64,000 nucleotides of DNA, taken from Allomuricauda sp. TMED12 (GTDB lineage Bacteria > Bacteroidota > Bacteroidia > Flavobacteriales > Flavobacteriaceae). Positions within the stretch are counted from its first letter, which is position 1; each line of letters begins with the position of its first letter. The notes beneath the pieces are model-generated. The model worked only from the letters and a program-made list of their open reading frames with translations. It was not told the origin of the DNA and made no database searches. A program made the translations under genes and the position numbers. The stretch covers positions 1-64,000 of the forward strand of contig NHBR02000038.1 of the NCBI GenBank assembly GCA_002167435.2, written 5' to 3'. Shown one piece after another: positions 18,672 to 30,749 of the stretch.

Positions 18672-20156
18672 TTAGGCCTTGGAAGTTAAGGATTTAAAGA
18701 ATACAAATCCGAAACCTAGGAACAACATGAGGTGGAAAGGGAACAATCCATAGTCGTTCAATGGTATGGCACTGTACATTCCGAAAAGGAAATAAATCAT
18801 TAAGGCAAACTCCAAAATCATGTTGGGGGACAATTTGGTGGTCAAATATTTATTGCCCTTCCAGGTGTCCTTAATACTATTGATGTTGAACTTTGGAGTT
18901 CGAACAAATTCACTTCGTTTTCCCAGATGTCCTTCCAAAACAGCCACGCTATTGTGCAAAGAGAAGCCCAATGCCACCGAGAAGAAGGTAAAGAAGAGTT
19001 TAATGTAGTCCACAAAATTATCAAAACTACTGCCCTGGATACTTTTATAGGTAAACCAATAACACACAAATAAGATAATGGTACTTAAGATAAAGAAGCT
19101 GGTCACTTCAAACACCCAACCTAAATGTCCGTATGTGTTTTTGATGTAGAGCATTGGAATGCTCAATAAGGCAACGGTGAAGACGCATAGGAACATTGAG
19201 CTGTTCAACAAATGCATTACACCGTGAAATTTCGTTTTAAAAGGTATGTTTTTGGAAGTTATGACACTCCAAACTGTTTTTCTGAAGTTTTCGGCTCCAC
19301 CTTTGTTCCAACGGAACTGTTGCGAACGGGCAGCACTGATTACCACGGGAAGCTCAGCGGGAGTTTCTACATCTTCCAAATACTTGAATTTCCAGTTTTT
19401 CAATTGGGCACGGTAGCTCAAATCCAAATCTTCGGTAAGGGTGTCACCTTCCCAGTTTCCTGCATCAAAAATGCATTCTTTTCTCCAAATACCTGCGGTA
19501 CCGTTAAAGTTGATAAAGTGTCCTTTGGAATTTCTACCTACTTGTTCCAAGGTAAAGTGGGCATCCAAAGCGAAGGCCTGAATACGGGTAAGGGTGGAAT
19601 AGTCCCGGTTGATATGTCCCCAACGGGTTTGTACAACCCCAATTTCTTCATCCTTGAAGTAAGGAACTGTTTTTTTGAGCCAATCGGCCTCGGGAAGGAA
19701 ATCTGCATCAAAAATGGCGATAAAGTCACCTTTGGCAATTTCCAAACCTTCTTTAAGGGCTCCTGCCTTAAAGCCTTTTCGGTTTTCCCTACGGATATGT
19801 TGAATGTCCAAACCAGTTTCTTGCAGTTCTTTGACCCTTTGGGCTGTTTCTATAACCGAATCATCTGTGGAGTCGTCCAAGACTTGGATTTCCAATTTAC
19901 TTTTTGGGTATTCTATTTTGGCGATGTTGTCCAACAAACGCTCCATTACATACTCCTCGTTATAGATGGGAAGTTGAATGGTGACGAACGGAATTTCTTT
20001 GGGATCGAGCAGGTTGAATTTTGGAGCTTCTTCGTTTCTTTTTTTGTAACCTAGATAGTTTACCAAGAGATTCAATTGTGCAAGGCTGTAAAAGAATATC
20101 AAAAGTAAGGCGAAACTGTAAATAGCAATGATGATGTAAGCAATAGCAAGTCCCAT
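18672..20156 (-). CDS. cellulose-synthase-family GT2 glycosyltransferase
   Basis: A 494-residue processive-type GT2. One N-terminal membrane segment precedes the catalytic domain with VTIQLPIYNEEYV, DDSTDDS, DADFLPEADW (nucleotide-sugar/metal Asp pair), TEDLDLSYR (general-base Asp) and QQFRWNKGG (the QxxRW-type acceptor motif). Four or so C-terminal membrane helices follow. Such enzymes make beta-linked polymers or glycolipids at the inner membrane. The product is not predictable. Its ATG overlaps the stop of the upstream GT2 gene (TAATG). Confidence 0.85.
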   Translation of the reverse strand: MGLAIAYIIIAIYSFALLLIFFYSLAQLNLLVNYLGYKKRNEEAPKFNLLDPKEIPFVTIQLPIYNEEYVMERLLDNIAKIEYPKSKLEIQVLDDSTDDSVIETAQRVKELQETGLDIQHIRRENRKGFKAGALKEGLEIAKGDFIAIFDADFLPEADWLKKTVPYFKDEEIGVVQTRWGHINRDYSTLTRIQAFALDAHFTLEQVGRNSKGHFINFNGTAGIWRKECIFDAGNWEGDTLTEDLDLSYRAQLKNWKFKYLEDVETPAELPVVISAARSQQFRWNKGGAENFRKTVWSVITSKNIPFKTKFHGVMHLLNSSMFLCVFTVALLSIPMLYIKNTYGHLGWVFEVTSFFILSTIILFVCYWFTYKSIQGSSFDNFVDYIKLFFTFFSVALGFSLHNSVAVLEGHLGKRSEFVRTPKFNINSIKDTWKGNKYLTTKLSPNMILEFALMIYFLFGMYSAIPLNDYGLFPFHLMLFLGFGFVFFKSLTSKA

Positions 20157-20845
20157 TATTTTAAACTGTATTTAAAGATCCAACCCAATATTTTCATGCC
20201 CGCAAATATAGTACCTTTTACGGTACCTGATACTTTTGAGATGCCAATTCTTCGTTTGTAACGTACTGGTACTTCGATATATGACATTTTTTTCCTCAAA
20301 ATTTTCAATTGCATTTCCACAGTCCACCCATAAGTTGTGTCCTGCATTTCCAATTCTTTGAGCTTTTCATATTTTATCGCCCTAAAAGGTCCTAAATCCG
20401 TAAATTTTGACCTGAAAAACAATCGCATTAAAAATGTGGCCAAATTGTTCCCAAAAACCTGTTGTGGAGTCATGGAACCTGGTTCGCGAAGTGATTTTTT
20501 TCGCGCTCCGACCACAAAATCAATGTCATTTTCCAAAATTGGGGCGACAATCTTATCCAATTCTTCCGGATAATCTGAATAGTCTCCGTCGATAAATACG
20601 ATGATATCGGGTGTTTTGGATTGTTCGGAGATGTATTTTAATCCTTTTAAACACGCAAACCCATAGCCTTTGCGGTTTTCAGCGATTACAGTTGCTCCTG
20701 CTTTTTTTGCATTTGCTACGGTATTGTCCGAGGAACCGTTGTCCACGACCACAATTTCAGATACGTGTTCAGGTATTTCTGAAACTACCAAACCAATGGA
20801 ATCTCCTTCATTTATTGCTGGGATAATAACTTTAATATTCGCCAT
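20156..20845 (-). CDS. GT2 glycosyltransferase, dolichol-phosphate-mannose-synthase-like
   Basis: A 229-residue GT-A enzyme. Motifs: VIIPAINEGDSIG, VVDNGSSDNT, FIDGDYSDYPEELDK (metal-binding region) and the acceptor-side FRAIKYEKLKEL. The ATG at 20845 is preferred over 20857 because it begins exactly at the GT-A strand. Proteins like this charge a polyprenyl phosphate with a sugar, and the GT-C-type mannosyltransferase two genes downstream would be an obvious user of that product. The three genes are translationally linked (1-base overlap and 9-base gap). Confidence 0.82.
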   Translation of the reverse strand: MANIKVIIPAINEGDSIGLVVSEIPEHVSEIVVVDNGSSDNTVANAKKAGATVIAENRKGYGFACLKGLKYISEQSKTPDIIVFIDGDYSDYPEELDKIVAPILENDIDFVVGARKKSLREPGSMTPQQVFGNNLATFLMRLFFRSKFTDLGPFRAIKYEKLKELEMQDTTYGWTVEMQLKILRKKMSYIEVPVRYKRRIGISKVSGTVKGTIFAGMKILGWIFKYSLK

Positions 20846-20934
20846 TGGCAGGAACAATTTTAGTTAGTGTTTAAGTTGGCAAAACTAAAATTTTCCTTGG
20901 ATTCCACTTTTAATTTCTCAAAGAGAAGGATAGT

Positions 20935-22539
20935 TTACTTCTTGTTTACGAGGGTCATTAGATCTACATCATTGCCCAACAGTACTTGATTGCTGTCAAT
21001 TCTACCTTCCAAAGGACCGTTCTCCAATTTGAGGACGCCTCGAGGACACACGGCGGAGCAGATACCGCATCCAACACAGCTTGCACGAACAATGTTTTCT
21101 CCTTTTTGAGCATAGGCACGTACATCAATACCCATTTCGCAGTACGTGGAACAATTTCCGCAAGAAATGCATTGTCCTCCGTTGGTTGTAATTCTGAATC
21201 TGGAGAAAAGTTTCTGCTGAAAACCAAGTATGGCGGCCATAGGACAACCAAACCTGCACCAGACCCTACTTCCGAAAATGGGATAGAACCCTGTTCCGAT
21301 TACTCCAGAAAAGATACTTCCAATCAAAAATGAATAGGATTTACGCAATGTTTCAGATTTAAAAAGAAATACCTGTCCTTCACCACTAAAAAAGTGAAAA
21401 CCGATTAGAGCGATAATGATCACAAAGTATCCAATGGCTCCATATTGTGCATCCTTCTGGAGTTGTTCGCGTTTAAAAATCATCACCCAACCAAAAACCA
21501 AAGTGAGCAAAATTGCTACGCCAATTAAAAAAGTGCTTTTCGTTAACCAATATTTACTGGTGTCGTTTCCCAAATAGGAGTAAATTACCGCTGTGGTCAT
21601 CAAGGTTACAAAAACTACCACGCTGTGCACTACCCAGCGTTCCACTTTCCAAGCAAAGGTGGACTTATCGCTCAATTGTCTAAAAGAATCACCTGCTGTT
21701 TCTGCAAGTCCACCGCAGCCACAAACCCAAGAGCAGTACCACCTTTTCCCATATTTATAGGTAAGGATAGGAGTGATAACGAATATGGATAGAATCCCAA
21801 AAATCAATAAGCCAAAACCAATTTCTCCGGAACTTAAAAACATCTTGATTCGGTACCCTTCAAAGTTGTAATAGTTGAGTGGCCAAATATTTTTGAGGTC
21901 GTAATAGGGCAAGCTACCTCCATCCAAAATTTTGTGACCGTTCAAACGAGCCATCAATTCTGGGATAATGAAAGCAAATCCGGTTTGAAAGAACATCACA
22001 CTCAAAGTCCGTAGCCTTTCGTATCGGTTATGGCGGTATTTCCATAGAAACTTGATGCCAAAGGCAATAATGGCAACAGTGTAAAGGGTGCCGTAAACAA
22101 ACCATTGACTAGCGGGATTGCCATTCAACAATTTACTGAGCGGGTCAAAAAGGGCAATTAAACCTTTGTTGTTTCCATCGCTGACCAATCCAAGGTATTC
22201 CGGATAAAAATAAAGCACAATATAAAACCCTGTCAATGATAGACCTGCCACCCACGCCCATAAACCACGACTGGAAATGGACTTGAACCAAACCCCATCG
22301 TTTTTTATTCCCGGGAGCTTATTGGTGTATGCGTCCCACGAAAACCAAATGATGCCTATTGCCATTGCTGAAAGTGATAGGGTTAACCAAAACGATTTAT
22401 TCGGAAAGTTAACATTGAATATTGCCAATAGGAGAATTCCCAATCCTGACAATCCCAATAACGTTGCAATTTTTTGACCGATGCTCAGGCTCTTTGGTGG
22501 TTCCCCAGTAAGGGCCATACTTTTGTCGTACGTGCTCAT
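20935..22539 (-). CDS. membrane polyferredoxin, 4Fe-4S protein of NapH/NosR type
   Basis: A 534-residue membrane protein with about eleven hydrophobic segments and four cysteine-rich regions. Cytoplasmic loops hold CSWVCGCGG and CRFGCP, the NapH/NosR/CcoG-like cysteine pairs, and the C terminus has two classical ferredoxin clusters: CISCGNCSTYC and CVGCGICSAVCPRG. It is expected to carry electrons between quinone and another carrier. The FAD oxidoreductase gene is 10 bases upstream and a natural electron donor partner. No nitrate, nitrous oxide or cytochrome genes are in sight, so the physiological acceptor is unknown. Confidence 0.78.
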   Translation of the reverse strand: MSTYDKSMALTGEPPKSLSIGQKIATLLGLSGLGILLLAIFNVNFPNKSFWLTLSLSAMAIGIIWFSWDAYTNKLPGIKNDGVWFKSISSRGLWAWVAGLSLTGFYIVLYFYPEYLGLVSDGNNKGLIALFDPLSKLLNGNPASQWFVYGTLYTVAIIAFGIKFLWKYRHNRYERLRTLSVMFFQTGFAFIIPELMARLNGHKILDGGSLPYYDLKNIWPLNYYNFEGYRIKMFLSSGEIGFGLLIFGILSIFVITPILTYKYGKRWYCSWVCGCGGLAETAGDSFRQLSDKSTFAWKVERWVVHSVVVFVTLMTTAVIYSYLGNDTSKYWLTKSTFLIGVAILLTLVFGWVMIFKREQLQKDAQYGAIGYFVIIIALIGFHFFSGEGQVFLFKSETLRKSYSFLIGSIFSGVIGTGFYPIFGSRVWCRFGCPMAAILGFQQKLFSRFRITTNGGQCISCGNCSTYCEMGIDVRAYAQKGENIVRASCVGCGICSAVCPRGVLKLENGPLEGRIDSNQVLLGNDVDLMTLVNKK

Positions 22540-22548
22540 AATTATAGG

Positions 22549-23898
22549 TTAGGCAATCTGGAAGATGCGTTTAAGGTTTTTCTTTTTCAACTTAATGGAC
22601 TTTCCAAAATCGGAATTGTATTTTGACACGATCTGTGATTCAAATCCTTTATAGAATTCGGGGTCAAAGTTGGCATCGGTGAGATGCTCCATCACAAAGT
22701 CAATAGTTCTTTTTTCGCTGAGCCAACGGTCGAACATCCCGTGCCTCAGACGAATCCCAAAAGTGTTGATGCCCAAAACTTCTTCGGATTCCTTATCAAA
22801 TGCAATGGTGATACAGATTTTTTCTTTGGGATGTCTCCAATGAAAATGGGTTTCCGTATCCTCTTTTCTTCTTTCCGAGAATACCCAGCCATAGGTTTGG
22901 TATTCGATATCCAGAAACTTGGCGGAGTTGAACCAATGTCCTGGATTGTATTCCATTCTGTTGCCGCAAATGGTCTGGGCAAGGGTTTCACCCATCATTC
23001 GGCCCGTATACCAAACGGCTTCTATGGGGCGTCGATTTCCAATGGCTTCGTGCTGTTCCGCACAATCACCAATAGCAAAAATATCTTCAATATTGGTTTC
23101 CAAAAATCGATTCACCTTAACTCCACGACCTAGACTTATTCCCGAATTTTTCAAAAAATCAATGTTCGGGCTAACCCCAGCCGTCAATCCAACCAAATCG
23201 CAATCAATTTCCTCCCCGGTTTCTTCGACCACAATCGATTTTACCTTCCCATCTTTACCAGGTTTGATTTCTTTTAGTGAAGCACCCAATCGAAGGTCAA
23301 TATGATGTTCACGAATATGTTCATTGATCATTTCAGATTCACCTTTAGGAAGCACACCGTTCCAAAAACTGGTCTCTCGAACTAAAAAAGTAACCGGTAT
23401 ATTTCGAGTGCGAAGCATTTCGGCCAATTCAATGCCAATCAACCCACCACCTACAATTACAGCGCGTTTGCAAACCTTATTGTTGGGGGCGTTTTCTTCC
23501 AAAAGTTCCAAGTCTTGTTTGGAATAGAGGCCTTGGACGCCATTTAAATCTTGGCCTGGCCATCCAAATTTATTGGGCTTGGATCCCGTAGCAATTATAA
23601 GTTTATCGTAGTTGAGGTCTGACACCCCATCAATCTGAATGCTTTTTTCTTCAGTATCTACCTTGGTAACATACCCTTCCACCAATTCAATCCTGTTTTT
23701 CTTCCAAAAGTGGTTTTCGTAGGGTTGGGTGTGCTCAAATTTCATGTGGCCCATGTACACGTACATTAAGGCGGTTCTTGAAAAGAAATACTTGCTTTCG
23801 GCGGAAATAATGGATATTTTTTTATCGGAAAGTTTCCGGATATGCCTTGCAGCGGTGACACCAGCTATTCCATTTCCAATGATGACAATATGTTCCAT
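22549..23898 (-). CDS. NAD(P)/FAD-dependent pyridine nucleotide-disulphide type oxidoreductase
   Basis: A 449-residue flavoprotein. FAD-binding GNGIAGVTAARHI at the N terminus, ATGSKP, NAD(P)-binding VGGGLIGIELAEML, and the second FAD motif IFAIGDCAE are all intact. It belongs to the rubredoxin reductase/NirB-like branch rather than to the redox-disulphide enzymes, since no CxxxxC is visible. The C-terminal 130 residues (HFHWRHPKEK, GIRLRHGMFD) are not a standard dimerisation domain. It would reduce the adjacent polyferredoxin. Confidence 0.83.
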   Translation of the reverse strand: MEHIVIIGNGIAGVTAARHIRKLSDKKISIISAESKYFFSRTALMYVYMGHMKFEHTQPYENHFWKKNRIELVEGYVTKVDTEEKSIQIDGVSDLNYDKLIIATGSKPNKFGWPGQDLNGVQGLYSKQDLELLEENAPNNKVCKRAVIVGGGLIGIELAEMLRTRNIPVTFLVRETSFWNGVLPKGESEMINEHIREHHIDLRLGASLKEIKPGKDGKVKSIVVEETGEEIDCDLVGLTAGVSPNIDFLKNSGISLGRGVKVNRFLETNIEDIFAIGDCAEQHEAIGNRRPIEAVWYTGRMMGETLAQTICGNRMEYNPGHWFNSAKFLDIEYQTYGWVFSERRKEDTETHFHWRHPKEKICITIAFDKESEEVLGINTFGIRLRHGMFDRWLSEKRTIDFVMEHLTDANFDPEFYKGFESQIVSKYNSDFGKSIKLKKKNLKRIFQIA

Positions 23899-24026
23899 GG
23901 GTCGGGTTTGATTGTTTTATGTGTCGAGTTTTTTGGAAAGAACTTAACAGTGAAATGAAAATTAAAAAGAATTTAGCAGCTGAAAGCTGTTTTAAAATTA
24001 TTATTTTAGAAGGGTCCACAATCATT

Positions 24027-25040
24027 ATGAAGAAACTGATTTTTTTATGGGCGTTTATTCTAGCCTCATGCAGTAGTGGCAAATTAGCCAAAGTCAATGG
24101 TGTCAGTTTTGTTTCTTCTGGGGAAGAGGCGTCACAACAACATATTGACCCGGTCCTAAAGGTAAGCGCAAATTATGCCGCGATAATGCCATTTGGCTTT
24201 ATCCGTGATATGGGTTCTCCCGAGTTGGTCTTTAATTCAGACCATCAATGGTATGGTGAGAGAAGGGAAGGTGTAAAACAGTACATAGAAAAGTTGCACC
24301 TAAATGGGGTGAGCGTAATGGTAAAACCCCAAATTTGGATATTTAGAGGTGAGTTTACAGGCAATATGAAAATGCCTTCCGAGGAGTATTGGAAAAAACT
24401 GGAGGCATCTTATGAGGAATATATATTGCTGTATGCGAAACTTGCCGAAGAAACACAAAGCGATATTTTTTGCATTGGAACAGAGTTGAAAACCTTTGTA
24501 AACGAACGACCTGAGTTTTGGAACAACCTTATCCAAAAAGTAAAAAATGTATATCACGGCGAACTCACCTATGCTGCCAACTGGGACGAATATGCTAAAA
24601 CACCGTTTTGGTCACAATTGGATTATATAGGTGTGAATGCCTATTTTCCATTGTGTGAAAAAGAAAATCCTACTATTCAAACACTTTCCGAGGGCTGGCA
24701 ACCTTGGAAAACTAAACTCAGGGAGTTGACCCAACAAGAGGGGAAACCTATTCTTTTTACGGAGTTTGGATACCGAAGCATGGATTTTACGGGTAAAAAA
24801 CCATGGTTGGTGGACCGGAATCAAATGGATGTAAATCTTAAGGCACAAGCCAATGCTACGCAGGTAATATTTGATGAATTTTGGCACGAGGATTGGTTTG
24901 CTGGTGGCTTTGTTTGGAAATGGTTCATGCAGCACGATCAAGTAGGAGGTCACGAGGATAATCGCTTTACGCCCCAAAATAAGCCTGCAGAATCCGTCAT
25001 ACGAAAGCAGTATGCACAAGTGAGGAAATCAAGTCGCTAA
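24027..25040 (+). CDS. GH113-like glycoside hydrolase lipoprotein
   Basis: A 337-residue lipoprotein. The ATG at 24027 is chosen since it gives a signal peptide with a lipobox ending LASC (Cys15). The TIM-barrel core is characteristic of family GH113 beta-mannanases: putative acid/base Glu153 in CIGTELKTF and nucleophile Glu246 in LFTEFGYRS, with YIGVNAYFPL between. The mature protein should be anchored at the envelope. GH113 enzymes act on beta-1,4-mannan; here the substrate is inference. It is divergent from the redox/glycosyltransferase operon and 101 bases ahead of the dead amidase gene. Confidence 0.75.
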   Translation: MKKLIFLWAFILASCSSGKLAKVNGVSFVSSGEEASQQHIDPVLKVSANYAAIMPFGFIRDMGSPELVFNSDHQWYGERREGVKQYIEKLHLNGVSVMVKPQIWIFRGEFTGNMKMPSEEYWKKLEASYEEYILLYAKLAEETQSDIFCIGTELKTFVNERPEFWNNLIQKVKNVYHGELTYAANWDEYAKTPFWSQLDYIGVNAYFPLCEKENPTIQTLSEGWQPWKTKLRELTQQEGKPILFTEFGYRSMDFTGKKPWLVDRNQMDVNLKAQANATQVIFDEFWHEDWFAGGFVWKWFMQHDQVGGHEDNRFTPQNKPAESVIRKQYAQVRKSSR

Positions 25041-25141: not shown

Positions 25142-26074
25142 ATGAAAATTCGATTATTCCTTCTATTTTGGGTGTGGGCCTCTGCACTTATATTTTCCCA
25201 AGAGAACAATTACTTTACGGTTGTTGCCGAACAGGGAGATGGTATTTTTTCATTGCTTCGTAAACAAGGATTGGATCCGGTAAAACATTATGGAGAGTTT
25301 CTTGAATTAAATTCGGATAAAATAAAAGAAGGTTCAGCCTTAAAGTTGGGCGAACATTATAAGATTCCCTATGCCGATGATTCTTTTAGAAAAACAGGCG
25401 TAATTGTAGAAGCCGAAAAAGAAGTGGAACAGCCAATTTTTGATAAGGAATTGGCCCAAATGTCCCTTAAGAGTGAGAAATTAAAGGATGCGGTATATTA
25501 TCTGATCACTGAAAAAGGTACAGAGGAGGACGAAAATTTTGTCAAAGATATTTCTGAACAGTTGGCAGCGGGGTTAATGGTACATGGAGCCAAAGTGTAC
25601 CTTATGGAGGAAAACTCTTCTTTGGACAAGATTGCAGACAGTGTGTCCACCGATAATTCGATGGGCGATTATATCAGGGTGATCAATAAACGTTATCTAC
25701 AGCATATGGGCAAATACCAAAGGGTACTGATCATACGTGGTGAATATGTTTCAGGTGGCAGAAATATGGATGTTGCGATTTATCACTATAATAAAAGTAC
25801 CCAAGGTCAACGATTTGCCCAAAGCATTCAGAATGTGTTTCAAGAAAACAGTGTTTCAAACAAAACCTTTGAAGAAGCCAGTTTAATTTTCGAAGATCAA
25901 AACAGCCTTTATTTGGCAAAAAACATTCTTCCCGCCATTAGCTTACTGACCATGGAGCCCGCTACCAAGGAATCCGATCACAAAATTCCAATTAAAACAA
26001 ATAAAAAAGAATTTGCCAACCTTATCAGCAATGGCATACTCAATGATTATGTTGATCTGGATTTTGACAATTGA
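25142..26074 (+). CDS. secreted LysM-like protein with degenerate amidase_3 fold
   Basis: A 310-residue secreted protein (signal peptide to about residue 20, ALIFSQ). Residues of about 22-76 look like a LysM-type wall-binding repeat (TVVAEQGDGIFSLL ... LKLGEHYKIP). Residues of about 115-305 resemble the order of amidase_3 domains (YYLITEKG, QLAAGLMVHGAKVYLM, RVLIIRGEYV, YLAKNILPAISLLTME). The zinc ligands of N-acetylmuramoyl-L-alanine amidases (His in the first strand, His in the SIHAN strand) are absent, so it is predicted to bind but not cut peptidoglycan. Remote homology; confidence moderate. Confidence 0.55.
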   Translation: MKIRLFLLFWVWASALIFSQENNYFTVVAEQGDGIFSLLRKQGLDPVKHYGEFLELNSDKIKEGSALKLGEHYKIPYADDSFRKTGVIVEAEKEVEQPIFDKELAQMSLKSEKLKDAVYYLITEKGTEEDENFVKDISEQLAAGLMVHGAKVYLMEENSSLDKIADSVSTDNSMGDYIRVINKRYLQHMGKYQRVLIIRGEYVSGGRNMDVAIYHYNKSTQGQRFAQSIQNVFQENSVSNKTFEEASLIFEDQNSLYLAKNILPAISLLTMEPATKESDHKIPIKTNKKEFANLISNGILNDYVDLDFDN

Positions 26075-26122: not shown

Positions 26123-27088
26123 CTAGCAACATCCACCCCCGTTGTAGTGGTAAGTGCTTTCACTAATATAGATTTCGTTGGATTCTTTTGCTAAAGCAGC
26201 TGCCGTTTTATCGCATACGGCCAAGGGTTGGTTTTGTTGCAGCACATGTCCTTTTTTATCATCAAAATACGCCTCATTGCCAAAATATATAGCAGTTTTT
26301 CCGGTGAACATACAAGGGCCATCTTCGGGCATTGGATCTTTTATGGCAGCAATTTCAACAGATTCAATATGTATAAGTTCGTCCGTAGGATAATGGTTGG
26401 GAGATAATATTCTATATGATCTTTTGCCTCTAATTTCAATAGTGCCGAATCCTGCATCGGTCAATACTTTTACATAATCCTTTAGCGGAATGCTTCCACT
26501 CAGGCACTGGGCCCTTAATCTGTCATCGTTTCGCAGTTCATCGCTCATGGGTTGTTCACAAATGGGATCGCTCATCACCAATCTACCGTGTGGTTTCAAT
26601 ACCCGATACATTTCGGAAACTGCTTTCTTTAGGTCTTCTATTTTAAAAATGTTAAATAGACAGTTTTGAGCCGCCACATCAATGCTTTCATCTTCTACTG
26701 GTAGATTTAAGGCATCACCTTTTACCAAGTTCACATATTCACTGTTGAACCAATCATTCTCCTCTTCCGCTATTTTGAAGTTTTTCCGGGAAGCTTCCAA
26801 CATTTCATCCACTGAATCTACACCGATGACCCCTCCTTTTTGTCTTGAAAAATAAGAGAACTGAAGTAGTTCCATACCCCCACCGACACCTACGTACAGA
26901 ATATTGGGGTTATTAACTAAGTCCTGCGCAGATACGGTGCTTCCACAACCATAGTTCATTTCTTGCATGATCTTGGGAATGGAAAGCCCAGGGAATTGCC
27001 AAATAGGATTGGTGGTACAGCAAAGTCCAACATCTGGAGTTAGGGCAGCTTCTTTATATAGGTCTTGGGTCGCGTCTAAATAGCTCAT
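26123..27088 (-). CDS. arsM: arsenosugar-type arsenite methyltransferase ArsM
   Basis: SAM-dependent methyltransferase that methylates trivalent arsenic. The SAM site is YVGVGGGMELL (65-75), and catalytic cysteines of the ArsM family appear in QNCLFN (Cys143) and AQCLSG (Cys195); a CC pair lies at 23-24. The long C-terminal extension ends in GGGCC, as in proteins named ArsM in arsenosugar clusters. It overlaps the purine phosphorylase gene by ATGA. Methylated arsenic would be the input to arsenosugar synthesis. Methylation activity itself is inferred. Confidence 0.82.
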   Translation of the reverse strand: MSYLDATQDLYKEAALTPDVGLCCTTNPIWQFPGLSIPKIMQEMNYGCGSTVSAQDLVNNPNILYVGVGGGMELLQFSYFSRQKGGVIGVDSVDEMLEASRKNFKIAEEENDWFNSEYVNLVKGDALNLPVEDESIDVAAQNCLFNIFKIEDLKKAVSEMYRVLKPHGRLVMSDPICEQPMSDELRNDDRLRAQCLSGSIPLKDYVKVLTDAGFGTIEIRGKRSYRILSPNHYPTDELIHIESVEIAAIKDPMPEDGPCMFTGKTAIYFGNEAYFDDKKGHVLQQNQPLAVCDKTAAALAKESNEIYISESTYHYNGGGCC

Positions 27089-27900
27089 AGTTCTTTGATT
27101 AGTTCTTTAAACAGTTTAATCATTTTGGGTTCCGCTTGTCCAGCAATCTTTAAAATCTCTTGGACTTCAACTGGTTCCAGATTGTCTGGGTCGCATTCAT
27201 CCGTTAAAACGGACACAGCTACAATAGGTAGTCGTAAATGATTCGCAACAATTACTTCGGGGACCGTACTCATTCCCACAGCATCGGCCCCCATAATTTT
27301 AAGCATGCGATATTCAGCCTTGGTTTCCAGTTGTGGTCCTACAACAGAAGCATATACCCCTTTTTGAAGCGAAATATTTTCTCGGGTTGCAATGGCTTCA
27401 ATTTTTTTGCACATTTCCACATCGTACGGCTCGCTCATATCCACAAATCGGTCACCAAACTCTCCTACATTTTTGAAAGCCAGGGGAGACCCACCTTGCA
27501 GATTGATGTGGTCTTCAATTAACATGATGTCACCCTTTTTAAAGTTAAGATTGATAGCCCCTGCAGCATTGGATACGAACAATTGTGTTATCCCAAGTTG
27601 ATGCATCACCCTTATAGGATAAGTAATATCCAAAAAATCATAGCCTTCGTACAAATGGAAACGCCCGTGCATTACCACGGCTTTTTTCCCTTCGATGGTT
27701 CCATAAATAAGTTTGCCTGTGTGGAATTCGACCGTGGCCAAAGGAAAATAGGGTATATGGTTGTAGTGAGCTTCAATGGGGTTTTCTATGCTGTCTATAA
27801 GTTGGCCCAAACCAGTGCCCAGTACTATGCCTATTTCTGGAGTTTCAAACCCTCGTTTTTTCAAGTATTCGACGGATTCGTCGAGTTGTTTTTGTGTCAT
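27085..27900 (-). CDS. purine-nucleoside phosphorylase
   Basis: Cleaves purine nucleosides with phosphate, releasing the base and ribose-1-phosphate. The phosphate loop IGIVLGTGLGQLI, GRFHLYEGYD, VSNAAGAIN and PQLETKAEYRM are all present in a 271-residue trimeric-type protein. It is flanked by and overlaps the ArsM and TIGR04282 genes by 4 bases each (ATGA), so it belongs to that operon. In arsenosugar clusters this enzyme is thought to remove adenine from a 5'-arsenoadenosine intermediate. It could instead be an ordinary salvage enzyme that has been recruited. Confidence 0.9.
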   Translation of the reverse strand: MTQKQLDESVEYLKKRGFETPEIGIVLGTGLGQLIDSIENPIEAHYNHIPYFPLATVEFHTGKLIYGTIEGKKAVVMHGRFHLYEGYDFLDITYPIRVMHQLGITQLFVSNAAGAINLNFKKGDIMLIEDHINLQGGSPLAFKNVGEFGDRFVDMSEPYDVEMCKKIEAIATRENISLQKGVYASVVGPQLETKAEYRMLKIMGADAVGMSTVPEVIVANHLRLPIVAVSVLTDECDPDNLEPVEVQEILKIAGQAEPKMIKLFKELIKEL

Positions 27901-28511
27901 TCCTTTATATGTTTTAAAAATGGCTCAAAAGCCTTAATGTCTTTGATATCTTCGTAATAGTCCACATCATTCTTTTCATCCAAAAGAGCGACTTCGTCAG
28001 ATTTTAAATCTTTTAAAGTATTGGACAGAACAGTGTCCGTTCCCCAGATTTTATTTTGGAACAATTTTTTATTTAATGACTTCATTCCCAAAAGATAATA
28101 CCCTCCGTCTTCGGCAGGTCCCACAACATAATCATTGTCTTTGAGTCTGGAAAAGGCTTCCTCCAAATCGGATTGGTTAAGATGAAACATATCGCTACCA
28201 ATAATAATGATATTATCAAAACCAGTTTGGAACCCTTCCTTAAAGGCATTCATCATGCGTTCGCCTAAATCTTCTCCTATCTGAAGTTTTTTTTGGTATA
28301 TTTTGTTGTCCCAAATATCATCTTCCCAAATCTCCTCGGAATAATAGACCCATTTTTCCACTTCGAGTTCTTTCGTGAAAGATACGGTATGGTCCAAAAG
28401 AAATTGATAGATGTCCAACGCAGTTTTATCGCCCACCTTGGAGGCTAGTCGTGTCTTGCATTTACCAAGTTCGGGGTTACGGGTAAGGATTAAAAGTAGG
28501 CTATTCTTCAA
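27897..28511 (-). CDS. TIGR04282-family glycosyltransferase (arsenosugar-type)
   Basis: A 204-residue protein of the DUF2064/TIGR04282 group. The N-terminal motif LTRNPELGKCKTRLA and PAEDGGYYLLGM with the metal-binding Asp pair are characteristic. The start must be TTG at 28511: an in-frame stop lies two codons upstream and no ATG occurs before residue 80 or so. It is the first gene of the three-gene operon, overlapping the phosphorylase gene by 4 bases. The name comes from the presence of this family in arsenosugar clusters; its reaction is not established in the sequence. Confidence 0.78.
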   Translation of the reverse strand: MKNSLLLILTRNPELGKCKTRLASKVGDKTALDIYQFLLDHTVSFTKELEVEKWVYYSEEIWEDDIWDNKIYQKKLQIGEDLGERMMNAFKEGFQTGFDNIIIIGSDMFHLNQSDLEEAFSRLKDNDYVVGPAEDGGYYLLGMKSLNKKLFQNKIWGTDTVLSNTLKDLKSDEVALLDEKNDVDYYEDIKDIKAFEPFLKHIKE

Positions 28512-28637
28512 CGATTATTGTTTTGGCCGAGGACGCTTTCAAAGCATAGGTCAACAAGTTGTTCCAATACTTACTGATGTTGTGTAATTTATAGTTTCAC
28601 TTGTTTTTGCACACAGCATGTCCTTTGTTTGTCCTAT

Positions 28638-28645
28638 CAAATATA
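28638..28645 (-). promoter_or_regulatory. candidate -7 box for the arsenosugar operon
   Basis: On the minus strand the sequence TATATTTG matches the Bacteroidota -7 consensus TAnnTTTG exactly. It would start transcription about 120 bases before the TTG start of the TIGR04282 gene. No TTG was found at the expected -33 position, so support is partial. Confidence 0.4.
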
Positions 28646-28703
28646 CCACCATAAAGATTTTGGACATTGAAGAAAGCGGAATTTTTAATTTTTCAGATAA
28701 AAA

Positions 28704-30749
28704 TCAGGATATTTTAACCAGATAATTGGGCAAGTGTTTGCGGAGTTTGTCGAACGAAATCGGTTTGGTAAAATAGTCGTTCATACCAACTCCTTTGGCT
28801 TCATCAATAGCTTCCCTGGTCACATCTGCAGAAAGACCAATAATGCCAATATCTTTGTTGAATTTTCTAATTTCCCTTGTAGCTCTTAAACCATCCATTT
28901 TAGGCATATGGATGTCCATGAATATTAAATGGTAACAGTTTTTCCGCGCAGCTTTTACTGCTTCGAATCCATCGGAAGCCGATTCGGATTGTACCCCTAA
29001 TTTTTCCAAAGTCTTTTTCAGGACCATTACATTCACCCTATTGTCATCCACTATTAGAACCTTGCAGCCACTTAGATCGATTGATTCGGAATTTGTGGTG
29101 CTTATTTTACTTTTGGTTTCTGCCAATGGGAATTTAAGGGACAAATAAAATTCCGTACCCACATTCTCCTGACTCATCACTTCAATTTTTCCTCCTAAGA
29201 GCTCCACAAGTTTATAAGTGATGTATAGGCCAAGACCACTACCTTCATGCCGTTTTGCTTTTCCGATATCTACTTGGGTAAACCTATCAAATATGGTCTT
29301 TAATTTGTTTTTTGGAATTCCTATTCCGGTATCCTTGATGACCATATCAATGGCCAATTTATCATTGACTATGTTTTCATGATAGGAAATCGTTATCCCC
29401 CCTTTTTCGGTAAATTTCAAGGAATTCCTTAAAATATTTGTAATGATTTGCCCATATTTTCCAATGTCCCCAACGGCATCTAGGTCGCTATTGATAGTTG
29501 AGTCCAAAGATATATGGAGTCCCTTTTCTTCCGCAGTACGCTGATATATTCTGATGATGTTTTTCAGCTCTTGCAATGGAGAAAAAATATCCTTTCTAAA
29601 AGTAGTTTTGCCAGATTCTATTTTATCTATTTCAAGAATGTCGTTTACCAACAGAAGCAACTTTTTTGAGGAAATGTCCATTAGTGACAGATATTCTTGT
29701 AAAGAACTATGTATCTCTGACAATTTTAATACCTCAATAAACCCAATAATTGCATTTAAAGGAGTTCTTATTTCATGGCTCATGTTGGAAATAAACTCTG
29801 TTTTTGCCTTGGATGATTTTTCAGCTCTCAGCTGTTCTTTCTTTAAGGATTTATTAAGCTCTTTAAGTTTGATGTTAGCATCACCTAAATAATCGTTTTT
29901 TCCTCTTGAAGACTGATAAAAATAAACAAGTAAACTGGTAAGAAAGGACAGTAAAAGGCCAAAAATCAAGTATACATAGGTTGCCTCTTTTCTTTCTGCC
30001 AAAAAATCCAAATGGGAAGGCATTAAGGAGAATGTCCATTTTTGCCCATCAAGGGCATCGACCTCAAAGCTGGTCGTGAATATGAATTCGTTGCCAATTT
30101 CACTGGTATTCGGGTTGTTTTTGGAATAAAAGATTGTTCCTCTTTCATCTTTGACTTCTATGGCATACTTATCCAAACCGGCTACCAGTTCATTGAAGGG
30201 TGAGGTGAAATCCATTCCGGCGGTAACCGACCCTTTAAATTTTCCTTCGAAATATACAGGAGCATCCACCAAAAAGGCACTACCTCCTTGGTGTAGCTTT
30301 GTCCATTGTGAAATGTTTGTAGATGAATCTTTTACGTGGTGGTCCCATTCTGGATATCTTGGGTGTTTGGAAAGGTCTAGCCCGACAGCTGCCCTATTGG
30401 CCTCCAAAGGAGTTATCTTTTTAATAATCATTAAAGTATCCAGCCACTCCACAAATTTAAACGATGGGTTTTGCTCCAAAATAAGGCGGGCATCTTTCTC
30501 CCAATATTGAAAATAGGATCCATTGGTCATTTCAATACGCTTTTTTAAATTCTCCAAGGATTTAACATCGTATTTGACCAAGGAGAAGAATTCTTTGGCC
30601 CGCAGGCTACCAGTGGTCTGGATTTCGCGTATGAATGTTGCCTTTTGGGTTTTGAGGGATTTATTCCATAAAACCAACACAATGGTGATAAAAACTGCAA
30701 ATATCGCAATGGGAAAGATCAGTTCTTTTTTTGAGGATTTCAACGACAT
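28704..30749 (-). CDS. CHASE-domain hybrid sensor histidine kinase/response regulator
   Basis: A 681-residue membrane sensor. Membrane segments at about 11-28 and 257-278 enclose a periplasmic CHASE-type domain (for example LEANRAAVGLDLSKHPRYPE and GGSAFLVDAPVYFEGKFKG). Then come HisKA with phospho-acceptor His325 (SHEIRTPLN), the ATPase domain (N442 in NSLKF, DTGIGIP, GSGLGLYI) and a receiver with Asp612 (MDIHMPKMDG). It can thus autophosphorylate and relay in one chain. No output gene is adjacent; the GH32 gene starts divergently 318 bases away. Confidence 0.88.
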   Translation of the reverse strand: MSLKSSKKELIFPIAIFAVFITIVLVLWNKSLKTQKATFIREIQTTGSLRAKEFFSLVKYDVKSLENLKKRIEMTNGSYFQYWEKDARLILEQNPSFKFVEWLDTLMIIKKITPLEANRAAVGLDLSKHPRYPEWDHHVKDSSTNISQWTKLHQGGSAFLVDAPVYFEGKFKGSVTAGMDFTSPFNELVAGLDKYAIEVKDERGTIFYSKNNPNTSEIGNEFIFTTSFEVDALDGQKWTFSLMPSHLDFLAERKEATYVYLIFGLLLSFLTSLLVYFYQSSRGKNDYLGDANIKLKELNKSLKKEQLRAEKSSKAKTEFISNMSHEIRTPLNAIIGFIEVLKLSEIHSSLQEYLSLMDISSKKLLLLVNDILEIDKIESGKTTFRKDIFSPLQELKNIIRIYQRTAEEKGLHISLDSTINSDLDAVGDIGKYGQIITNILRNSLKFTEKGGITISYHENIVNDKLAIDMVIKDTGIGIPKNKLKTIFDRFTQVDIGKAKRHEGSGLGLYITYKLVELLGGKIEVMSQENVGTEFYLSLKFPLAETKSKISTTNSESIDLSGCKVLIVDDNRVNVMVLKKTLEKLGVQSESASDGFEAVKAARKNCYHLIFMDIHMPKMDGLRATREIRKFNKDIGIIGLSADVTREAIDEAKGVGMNDYFTKPISFDKLRKHLPNYLVKIS

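What the first reader, a model, noticed from the sequence alone, without database searches (positions are those of the whole stretch)
26123..28511. Arsenosugar-type operon without its radical SAM enzyme ArsS
Three overlapping genes (ArsM methyltransferase with GGGCC tail, purine-nucleoside phosphorylase, TIGR04282 glycosyltransferase) match the known arsenosugar gene set, linked by two ATGA overlaps. The expected radical SAM protein ArsS, which makes the 5'-arsenoadenosine step, is not on either strand nearby, and there is no ArsR-type regulator. Either ArsS is elsewhere in the genome or a different enzyme takes its place. The same region holds DPM-like and GT-C glycosyltransferases and an FAD/polyferredoxin pair, raising a speculative link to an arsenolipid or other glycolipid route.
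Basis: partly seen in the sequence, partly recalled or inferred. Interest (0 to 1): 0.7.

Follow-up and report, generated by a model that had tools for sequence, protein, structure and literature searches.

The report
Split, trimmed arsenosugar operon in Flagellimonas
These three genes are a real piece of a known bacterial arsenic-sugar pathway whose supposedly missing enzyme sits elsewhere in the same genome; what is really lost here is the last sugar-transfer gene, and the remaining two genes suggest how the pathway's unassigned middle steps may work.

Summary
In detail: ArsM (NF038099), a purine-nucleoside-phosphorylase-type enzyme and TIGR04282 overlap by ATGA, all above curated cut-offs. 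ArsS is not missing: one full-length copy (444.9 bits, cut-off 300) lies on another contig beside TIGR04169; an ArsR...ACR3 operon is on a third. In 120 flavobacterial genomes all 69 with this ArsM have ArsS; 12 of 69 keep them apart, as do 50 of 57 in the window's genus. What this lineage lost is the other end: DUF547 and the TIGR04283 glycosyltransferase are gone and a rhodanese remnant lies at 28507-28692. 26 of 60 genus members lack TIGR04283, yet the trio stays intact under purifying selection. TIGR04282 folds like CofC/FbiD nucleotidyltransferases; the PNP has Val/Ile in place of His257, as MTA phosphorylase has. Proposed route (inferred): ArsM methylates, ArsS adds 5'-deoxyadenosyl, PNP releases arsenoribose-1-phosphate, TIGR04282 makes NDP-arsenoribose; the last transfer is unassigned here.

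The parts
26123..27088 (-). ArsM, arsenosugar-type arsenite methyltransferase (NF038099), C-terminal GGGCC
   Evidence: 571.7 bits, cut-off 400; all ten Cys of the window protein conserved in 148 or 149 of 149 aligned ArsMs; median dN/dS 0.022 in the TIGR04283-less group, 32 usable pairs of 276
27085..27900 (-). PNP/MTAP-superfamily nucleoside phosphorylase; human-PNP N243 is Asp, H257 is Val, F200 is Leu; predicted to prefer a 5'-modified adenosine
   Evidence: TIGR01700 302.2/293.35; residues (recalled human sequences checked); the only match to TIGR01697 at E<=1e-15 in its genome
27897..28511 (-). TIGR04282 (DUF2064), annotated as glycosyltransferase; predicted CofC/FbiD-like nucleotidyltransferase; TTG start
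   Evidence: 209.9/134; AlphaFold model pLDDT 94; nearest folds 3cgx, 7p97, 2i5e, 6bwh; only copy in the genome at E<=0.001
28507..28692 (-). decayed remnant (C-terminal third) of the rhodanese gene (NF045521) that precedes TIGR04282 in relatives
   Evidence: best 48.9 bits, E 6.6e-10 against the whole window; 97 hits in the 28500 bin from 101 flavobacterial rhodanese queries, at most 3 in any other 500-nt bin; weaker hit also in L180
26075..26122 (.). 48-nt gap where DUF547 and TIGR04283 lie in relatives (clean loss)
   Evidence: relatives such as L207, L212, L220 have DUF547-TIGR04283 between ArsM and the next syntenic gene
25142..26074 (+). convergent neighbour of unknown family that marks the far border of the deletion
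   Evidence: homologue lies beyond TIGR04283 in species that keep it; no Pfam or NCBIfam match at E<=0.001

Best explanation
The locus is the middle block (TIGR04282-PNP-ArsM) of the flavobacterial arsenosugar operon of a Flagellimonas/Allomuricauda species. Shown: the ArsS end (ArsS plus TIGR04169) is on a separate locus; DUF547, TIGR04283 and the rhodanese are absent from the locus, the rhodanese having left a remnant; relatives have them; the block is intact and its sequence evolution in the TIGR04283-less group shows purifying selection. Inferred mechanism: ArsM makes dimethylarsenic; ArsS, from the other locus, joins it to the 5'-deoxyadenosyl group; the PNP-type enzyme phosphorolyses that 5'-arseno-adenosine to adenine plus 5-deoxy-5-(dimethylarsinoyl)ribose-1-phosphate; TIGR04282, a nucleotidyltransferase rather than a glycosyltransferase, activates this sugar phosphate with an NTP. 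In full operons TIGR04283 would pass the activated arsenoribose to an acceptor; in this lineage that step is done by an unidentified enzyme or the pathway ends earlier.
For: ArsS single copy over cut-off in the genome, 444.9 bits, TIGR04169 beside it; the C97 pair is 83-88% (ArsS) and 91-96% (TIGR04169) like those of most other split genomes. Nested occurrence in 120 genomes: ArsM in 69, all with ArsS; ArsS in 88, all with TIGR04282; TIGR04283 in 78, all with TIGR04282. Operon order. Split in 12 of 69, five of them on one contig 377-683 kb apart. Genus: ArsS 60 of 60, ArsM over cut-off 56 of 60, TIGR04283 34 of 60; ArsM and ArsS apart in 50 of 57, adjacent in 7. Rhodanese remnant. dN/dS 0.098, 0.048, 0.022 for TIGR04282, PNP, ArsM in the TIGR04283-less group. 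TIGR04282 model: Z 26.6 to 3cgx, 19.6 to 3-phosphoglycerate guanylyltransferase, 16.9 to Rv2983; CofC Pfam over its cut-off, 29.3/22; K19, R21, D107, D135, D184 conserved in at least 155 of 156. PNP: H257 replaced by Val or Ile in 156 of 156 PNPs of ArsS or ArsM loci, against His in 7 of 7 PNPs of the classic clade; MTAP has Val there. Human PNP E201Q:N243D gains adenosine-type substrates (PMC2799393, passages).
Against: No substrate of PNP or TIGR04282 was tested. Asp243 does not discriminate: the classic PNPs of this family have it too, and E201, also changed in the human mutant, is kept. Eight ArsS-less genomes keep a solitary PNP of the same His257-less clade, scattered among operon PNPs in the tree, so the enzyme probably has a use outside arsenosugars. 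Four ArsS-less genomes keep TIGR04282-PNP-TIGR04283 without ArsM or ArsS nearby. TIGR04282 also resembles GT-A glycosyltransferases (mannosylglycerate synthase Z 12.9) and stays under the CofC model TIGR03552's cut-off. 19 of 88 ArsS genomes lack this ArsM, so the coupling is not strict in that direction.
Confidence: 0.72

Rival explanations
1. The PNP is not a pathway enzyme for arsenosugar but salvages 5'-deoxyadenosine or methylthioadenosine (radical-SAM and general SAM by-products); TIGR04282 activates another sugar phosphate.
For: Solitary PNPs of the same clade persist in 8 ArsS-less genomes; four ArsS-less genomes keep TIGR04282-PNP-TIGR04283 without ArsM or ArsS (L183, L185, L186, L190). 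This is the only TIGR01697 match at E<=1e-15 in its genome.
Against: PNP and full-length TIGR04282 lie within 2 kb of ArsM in 67 of 69; TIGR04282 is in 88 of 88 ArsS genomes and 6 of 32 ArsS-less ones.
Confidence: 0.25
2. The pathway here is complete: another glycosyltransferase of the genome, for example a GT2 such as the DPM-like one at 20156-20857, has replaced TIGR04283 and puts the arsenoribose on a lipid or glycan.
For: 12 weak TIGR04283-like matches exist in the genome, best 67.9 bits; the core trio is still under selection without TIGR04283.
Against: None is near the 182-bit cut-off; the DPM-like gene scores 34-35 bits. The FAD reductase/ferredoxin neighbours are also found beside operons that keep TIGR04283. 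No GT was tested for co-variation with TIGR04283 loss.
Confidence: 0.3
3. PNP serves as an arsenolytic arsenate-reducing factor, making arsenite for ArsM.
For: PNP-linked arsenate reduction in vitro is described for mammalian PNP (PMC12608789, passages).
Against: The genome has an ArsC-like gene in an ACR3 operon on C47 (ArsC-like is my reading of the sequence, it had no NCBIfam hit at E<=1e-8). The change at the 5' site would not be needed for arsenolysis (inference).
Confidence: 0.08
4. The operon is simply dying after loss of its last gene and makes nothing useful.
For: A decayed rhodanese and absent DUF547/TIGR04283.
Against: No internal stops in TIGR04282, PNP or ArsM of 24 TIGR04283-less rows and low dN/dS; of 26 TIGR04283-less genus members 25 keep ArsM and 26 keep ArsS.
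Confidence: 0.07

Closest known systems
Arsenosugar biosynthetic set (ArsM NF038099, ArsS TIGR04167, TIGR04169, TIGR04282, TIGR04283; PNP beside them in flavobacteria)
   Same: ArsM, ArsS, TIGR04169, PNP and TIGR04282 all present over cut-off; same order within the core block as in full flavobacterial operons
   Different: ArsS/TIGR04169 on another contig; no TIGR04283 over cut-off in the genome; DUF547 absent and rhodanese decayed at the locus
CofC / FbiD (2-phospho-L-lactate, PEP or 3-phosphoglycerate guanylyltransferase)
   Same: TIGR04282 model superposes (Z 16.9-19.6) and CofC Pfam passes its cut-off
   Different: TIGR03552 cut-off not reached (32.9 against 105); substrate expected to be a sugar-1-phosphate; F420 genes were not looked for
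Methylthioadenosine phosphorylase (MTAP)
   Same: Asp at human-PNP 243 and Val at 257 (5' pocket)
   Different: TIGR01694 97.5 bits against a cut-off of 274.85; E201 kept as in PNP
ArsR-ArsC-ACR3 resistance operon
   Same: present in the same genome (C47)
   Different: a separate locus; no ArsR-type hit on the window's contig and no efflux gene among the neighbours scanned

Membership tests
Arsenosugar-type ArsM (NF038099) | score over curated cut-off 400, full length | tested here: met
   571.7 bits, residues 2-321 on profile 1-321 of 321
Arsenosugar-type ArsM (NF038099) | methylates arsenite | not testable with these tools
   needs enzyme assay
Arsenosugar biosynthetic cluster | ArsS (TIGR04167) encoded in the genome | tested here: met
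   444.9 bits at G000:C97:26365-27270, no stops inside
Arsenosugar biosynthetic cluster | ArsS next to ArsM | tested here: not met
   different contigs; 12 of 69 ArsM genomes of the family split likewise
Arsenosugar biosynthetic cluster | TIGR04283 glycosyltransferase in the genome | tested here: not met
   best 67.9 bits, cut-off 182; 26 of 60 genus members lack it, this one included
Arsenosugar biosynthetic cluster | cells make arsenosugars | not testable with these tools
   needs LC-ICP-MS
Inosine/guanosine-type PNP (TIGR01700) | score over cut-off | tested here: met
   302.2 against 293.35
Inosine/guanosine-type PNP (TIGR01700) | Asn243 and His257 (human numbering) for 6-oxopurine and 5'-OH | tested here: not met
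   Asp and Val in the window protein; the role of His257 is recalled
MTAP (TIGR01694) | score over cut-off | tested here: not met
   97.5 against 274.85
TIGR04282 / DUF2064 | score over cut-off | tested here: met
   209.9 against 134; PF09837 101.7 against 25.8
CofC-type nucleotidyltransferase fold | same fold with conserved NTP- and metal-site residues | tested here: met
   fold; conserved K, R and D residues; which of them bind NTP or metal is my reading by family pattern, not a docked model
CofC (TIGR03552) | score over cut-off 105 | tested here: not met
   32.9 bits
ars resistance operon | ArsR and efflux gene in the same operon | tested here: not met
   the ArsR and ACR3 found lie together on C47

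The most novel reading that the evidence does not exclude
Bacterial arsenosugar formation runs through a nucleotide-activated arsenoribose: an MTAP-like PNP converts ArsS's 5'-dimethylarsinoyl-adenosine to arsenoribose-1-phosphate, TIGR04282 (misnamed a glycosyltransferase) makes NDP-arsenoribose, and TIGR04283 transfers it. In the Flagellimonas sublineage of the window the transferase was lost and the activated arsenoribose goes to a different acceptor, giving an undescribed arsenical.
Probability: 0.35. Interest if true: 0.75.

Novelty: new variant of a known kind. Interest (0 to 1): 0.45.

Why it matters
No paper among those listed by my searches was seen to assign the steps after ArsS (several lists were capped, and the 2019 paper on steps of the pathway is not held). 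The gene set points to a concrete, assayable route (phosphorolysis, then nucleotidyl transfer) and to a renaming of TIGR04282. A lineage that has lost the terminal transferase but keeps the rest under selection is a ready natural mutant: its arsenic species should differ from those of its sister species.

Tried and rejected
ArsS replaced by another enzyme: rejected, ArsS is present. The weak C123 match (22.4 bits) is below the cut-off and was taken as a generic radical SAM protein without further test. Missing TIGR04283 as an assembly gap: unlikely, 26 of 60 genus members lack it, three of them single-contig genomes (G123, G135, G136), and the window is continuous across the place.

N243D as a mark of the operon PNP: rejected as a discriminator, since the classic PNPs of seven ArsS-less genomes have it; His257 loss and F200L separate the two clades. 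Functional link with the 17-24 kb genes: not supported where testable. Single loss of TIGR04283: the tree needs one change for 24 rows (shuffled mean 16.7), but that branch has support of only 28, so one loss is not shown.

dN/dS used only pairs with dS 0.05-1.5: in the TIGR04283-less group 47 (TIGR04282), 64 (PNP) and 32 (ArsM) of 276 pairs; in the TIGR04283-positive group 7, 19 and 2 of 171, so the groups cannot be compared well. The 4-nt overlaps are not universal: of 78 named loci with all three genes, 45 have it between TIGR04282 and PNP and 59 between PNP and ArsM (assuming the window's gene lengths). PADLOC gave nothing for two proteins. Searches for Flagellimonas with arsenic and for CofC-like guanylyltransferases gave listings that I did not read further.
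Full report
OBSERVATION. All pass curated cut-offs. The GGGCC tail is a family trait (148 of 149 aligned ArsMs).

WHERE ArsS IS. A search of the window's own assembly (4.34 Mb, 150 contigs, completeness 98.74, contamination 3.42) finds one ArsS over the cut-off, at C97:26365-27270, 444.9 bits against 300. Directly upstream of it, on the same strand, is TIGR04169, the arsenosugar-associated peroxidase-like protein, 198.0 bits against 120. It is unlikely to be a contaminant: the ArsS of most other split genomes is 83-88% like it, and all 60 genus members searched have one. ArsR-type hits are on other contigs. The one on C47 heads an operon ArsR - small protein - ArsC-like protein - ACR3 (ArsR NF033788 65.1 bits against 55, ACR3 443.8 against 282.8; the two between had no NCBIfam hit at E<=1e-8). 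So neither enzyme nor regulator is missing from the genome; they are not at this locus.

HOW USUAL IS THE SPLIT. In 120 genomes of the family, each of a different genus, NF038099 ArsM is over its cut-off in 69, ArsS in 88, TIGR04282 in 94, TIGR04283 in 78. The sets are nested: all 69 ArsM genomes have ArsS, all 88 ArsS genomes have TIGR04282, all 78 TIGR04283 genomes have TIGR04282; ArsS without this ArsM occurs in 19, and ArsM without TIGR04283 in 9, the window's included. ArsM and ArsS starts lie within 7 kb in 51 of 69, 10-12 kb apart in 6, and are split in 12: seven on different contigs, the window's among them, and five on one contig but 377-683 kb apart. The window is nearest to Flagellimonas/Allomuricauda records, ArsM 96% to F. 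lutimaris (records of the window's own genome may be left out there). In 60 genomes of the genus ArsS is in 60, ArsM over cut-off in 56, one more cut by a contig end, and TIGR04283 in 34; G148 (71% complete), G161 and G171 have no ArsM match at E<=1e-50. Of the 57 with ArsM, 24 have ArsS on the same contig 469-706 kb away, 26 on another contig and 7 next door. Those seven (G127, G138, G141, G143, G154, G158, G175) have an ArsM only 78-80% like the window's beside ArsS, and their other locus keeps TIGR04282-PNP-DUF547-TIGR04283 without ArsM. Genes re-sort between the two loci, but in these surveys every genome with this ArsM has ArsS.

WHAT IS REALLY MISSING. The full flavobacterial operon reads TIGR04169 - ArsS - rhodanese NF045521 - TIGR04282 - PNP - ArsM - (fatty-acid-hydroxylase-like) - DUF547 - TIGR04283 (the bracketed gene, the rhodanese and others vary). 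At the window locus DUF547 and TIGR04283 are gone: ArsM's stop is 48 nt from a convergent gene whose homologue lies beyond TIGR04283 in relatives. No TIGR04283 over cut-off exists in the genome (best 67.9 bits against 182). Upstream of TIGR04282, at 28507-28692, is the decayed C-terminal third of the rhodanese: best 48.9 bits, E 6.6e-10 against the whole window, with 97 hits from 101 rhodanese queries in that 500-nt bin and at most 3 in any other. Of 23 named TIGR04283-less loci, L193, L195, L196, L198 and L202 give clear remnants (37-49 bits); the other 18 give hits of 20-25 bits (8) or none (10, one of them cut short). In the 80 named loci these 23 (L193-L206, L209, L210, L213-L217, L219, L228) have the core trio without rhodanese, DUF547 and TIGR04283; two more (L247, L266) end soon after ArsM, so their lack of TIGR04283 says nothing. 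A concatenated tree needs one change of state for the 24 TIGR04283-less rows (window included), shuffled mean 16.7, but the support of that branch is 28, so a single loss is likely, not shown. The trio has no internal stops in this group, and median dN/dS is 0.098 (TIGR04282), 0.048 (PNP) and 0.022 (ArsM), from 47, 64 and 32 usable pairs of 276. The trimmed pathway therefore looks still selected.

WHAT TIGR04282 DOES. It is named a glycosyltransferase, but CofC Pfam PF01983 scores 29.3 against a cut-off of 22, while CofC TIGR03552 stays below its own (32.9 against 105). The model (31 homologues, pLDDT 94, pTM 0.90) is nearest to 3cgx, a DUF2064-like protein deposited as a putative transferase (Z 26.6). 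Then come 3-phospho-D-glycerate guanylyltransferase 7p97 (19.6), MM2497 2i5e, a probable nucleotidyltransferase (18.9) and Rv2983 6bwh (16.9; FbiD by recall), then IspD, TarI and GlmU (13-14). Mannosylglycerate synthase, a true glycosyltransferase, is at 12.9, within 1-2 of these. K19, R21, D107, D135, D184 and D188 are conserved in at least 155 of 156. A nucleotidyltransferase is the best reading; a shared fold does not prove it. One paper also calls a TIGR04282 gene fbiD (PMC8801600, two passages).

WHAT THE PNP DOES. Aligned to human PNP and MTAP, 156 of 156 PNPs of ArsS or ArsM loci (98 family loci and 80 named loci searched, some of the same species) have Asp at N243 and Leu at F200, and Val (26) or Ile (130) at H257. 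I recall that His257 binds the 5'-hydroxyl in human PNP and that MTAP holds its 5'-methylthio group in a hydrophobic pocket there; MTAP has Val at this column. The human double mutant E201Q:N243D takes adenosine-type prodrugs (PMC2799393, passages); here E201 is kept. Control: PNPs were sought in the 32 ArsS-less genomes (E<=1e-15); 19 had one. Seven are of a classic clade with Asp243, Phe200 and His257. Twelve are of the operon clade (Ile in 10, Val in 1, Leu in 1 at 257): four still beside TIGR04282 and TIGR04283 without ArsM or ArsS, eight with none of these genes in the 1.5 kb flanks. So Asp243 says nothing special; the loss of His257 marks the clade, and the clade is not confined to arsenosugar genomes. 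The tree scatters the solitary ones among the operon ones (5 changes, FastTree, long branches flagged).

MECHANISM. Established by others: ArsM supplies methylated arsenic and a radical SAM enzyme, ArsS, adenosylates arsenic (the latter: a sentence and the citation of Cheng et al. 2021 in PMC12159101, passages; the former: the title of Xue et al. 2017 in the reference list of PMC8787705). Inferred here: phosphorolysis by the PNP gives arsenoribose-1-phosphate plus adenine; TIGR04282 then makes NDP-arsenoribose; TIGR04283 transfers it. This order gives each enzyme a substrate made by the one before and would explain why PNP and TIGR04282 travel together. In this lineage the last transfer is open: another GT, another acceptor, or an earlier end point.

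LITERATURE. Searches of the held library showed no paper assigning PNP or TIGR04282 a step in arsenosugar formation; I saw listings, and passages of five papers. Lists were capped (20 of 113, 20 of 873, 8 of 186), and PMC8801600, which does hold TIGR04282, did not show's list. [quoted passage not shown] This is no claim of priority. Mammalian PNP as an arsenate-reducing factor in vitro (PMC12608789, passages) is kept as a minor rival.

VERDICT. The headline puzzle, a missing ArsS, dissolves. What remains is a new variant of a known pathway: split in two and trimmed of its terminal transferase while the core is maintained, with a testable proposal for the unassigned middle steps.

Noticed in passing
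family survey; ArsS loci L151-L169: 19 of 88 ArsS-positive flavobacterial genomes lack NF038099 ArsM; six of them have another ArsM-like protein at about 98-109 bits, the other 13 none of that size. They may use imported DMA or another substrate.
   Followed up: partly
L075, L084, L089, L093, L105, L119: Six loci in which ArsS and ArsM are 10-12 kb apart carry SusC/SusD-like outer-membrane uptake genes, a sodium-symporter-like gene and a metallophosphatase inside the operon (families read in L089; L075 and L105 by cluster membership, the other three by partial cluster listing and spacing): possible uptake of arsenosugars or phosphate esters.
   Followed up: partly
L072:7462-8157, L142:3458-4225 and others: A TIGR04282 paralogue matching only the C-terminal two thirds of the profile (from about position 69) sits next to ArsS or TIGR04169 in many genomes; it lacks a match to the N-terminal K/R motif, so it may be a non-catalytic partner. 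The window's genome has none.
   Followed up: no
L284-L297 (seven Flagellimonas genomes): ArsM only 78-80% like the window's lies right after ArsS while the other locus has no ArsM: apparent replacement by a copy of another lineage.
   Followed up: partly
L183, L185, L186, L190: ArsS-less genomes keep rhodanese-TIGR04282-PNP-TIGR04283 (DUF547 seen in three of four) without ArsM or ArsS: a relic or a use on another 5'-modified nucleoside.
   Followed up: no
window 20935-25040: GH113-like glycoside hydrolase, pyridine-nucleotide-disulphide oxidoreductase and a membrane ferredoxin form a syntenic block near ArsM in several genera.
   Followed up: partly
window 28704-30749 (-): Hybrid histidine kinase-response regulator directly upstream of the operon; a homologue lies within the 6 kb flanks of ArsM in some but not all close relatives. 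A possible regulator.
   Followed up: no
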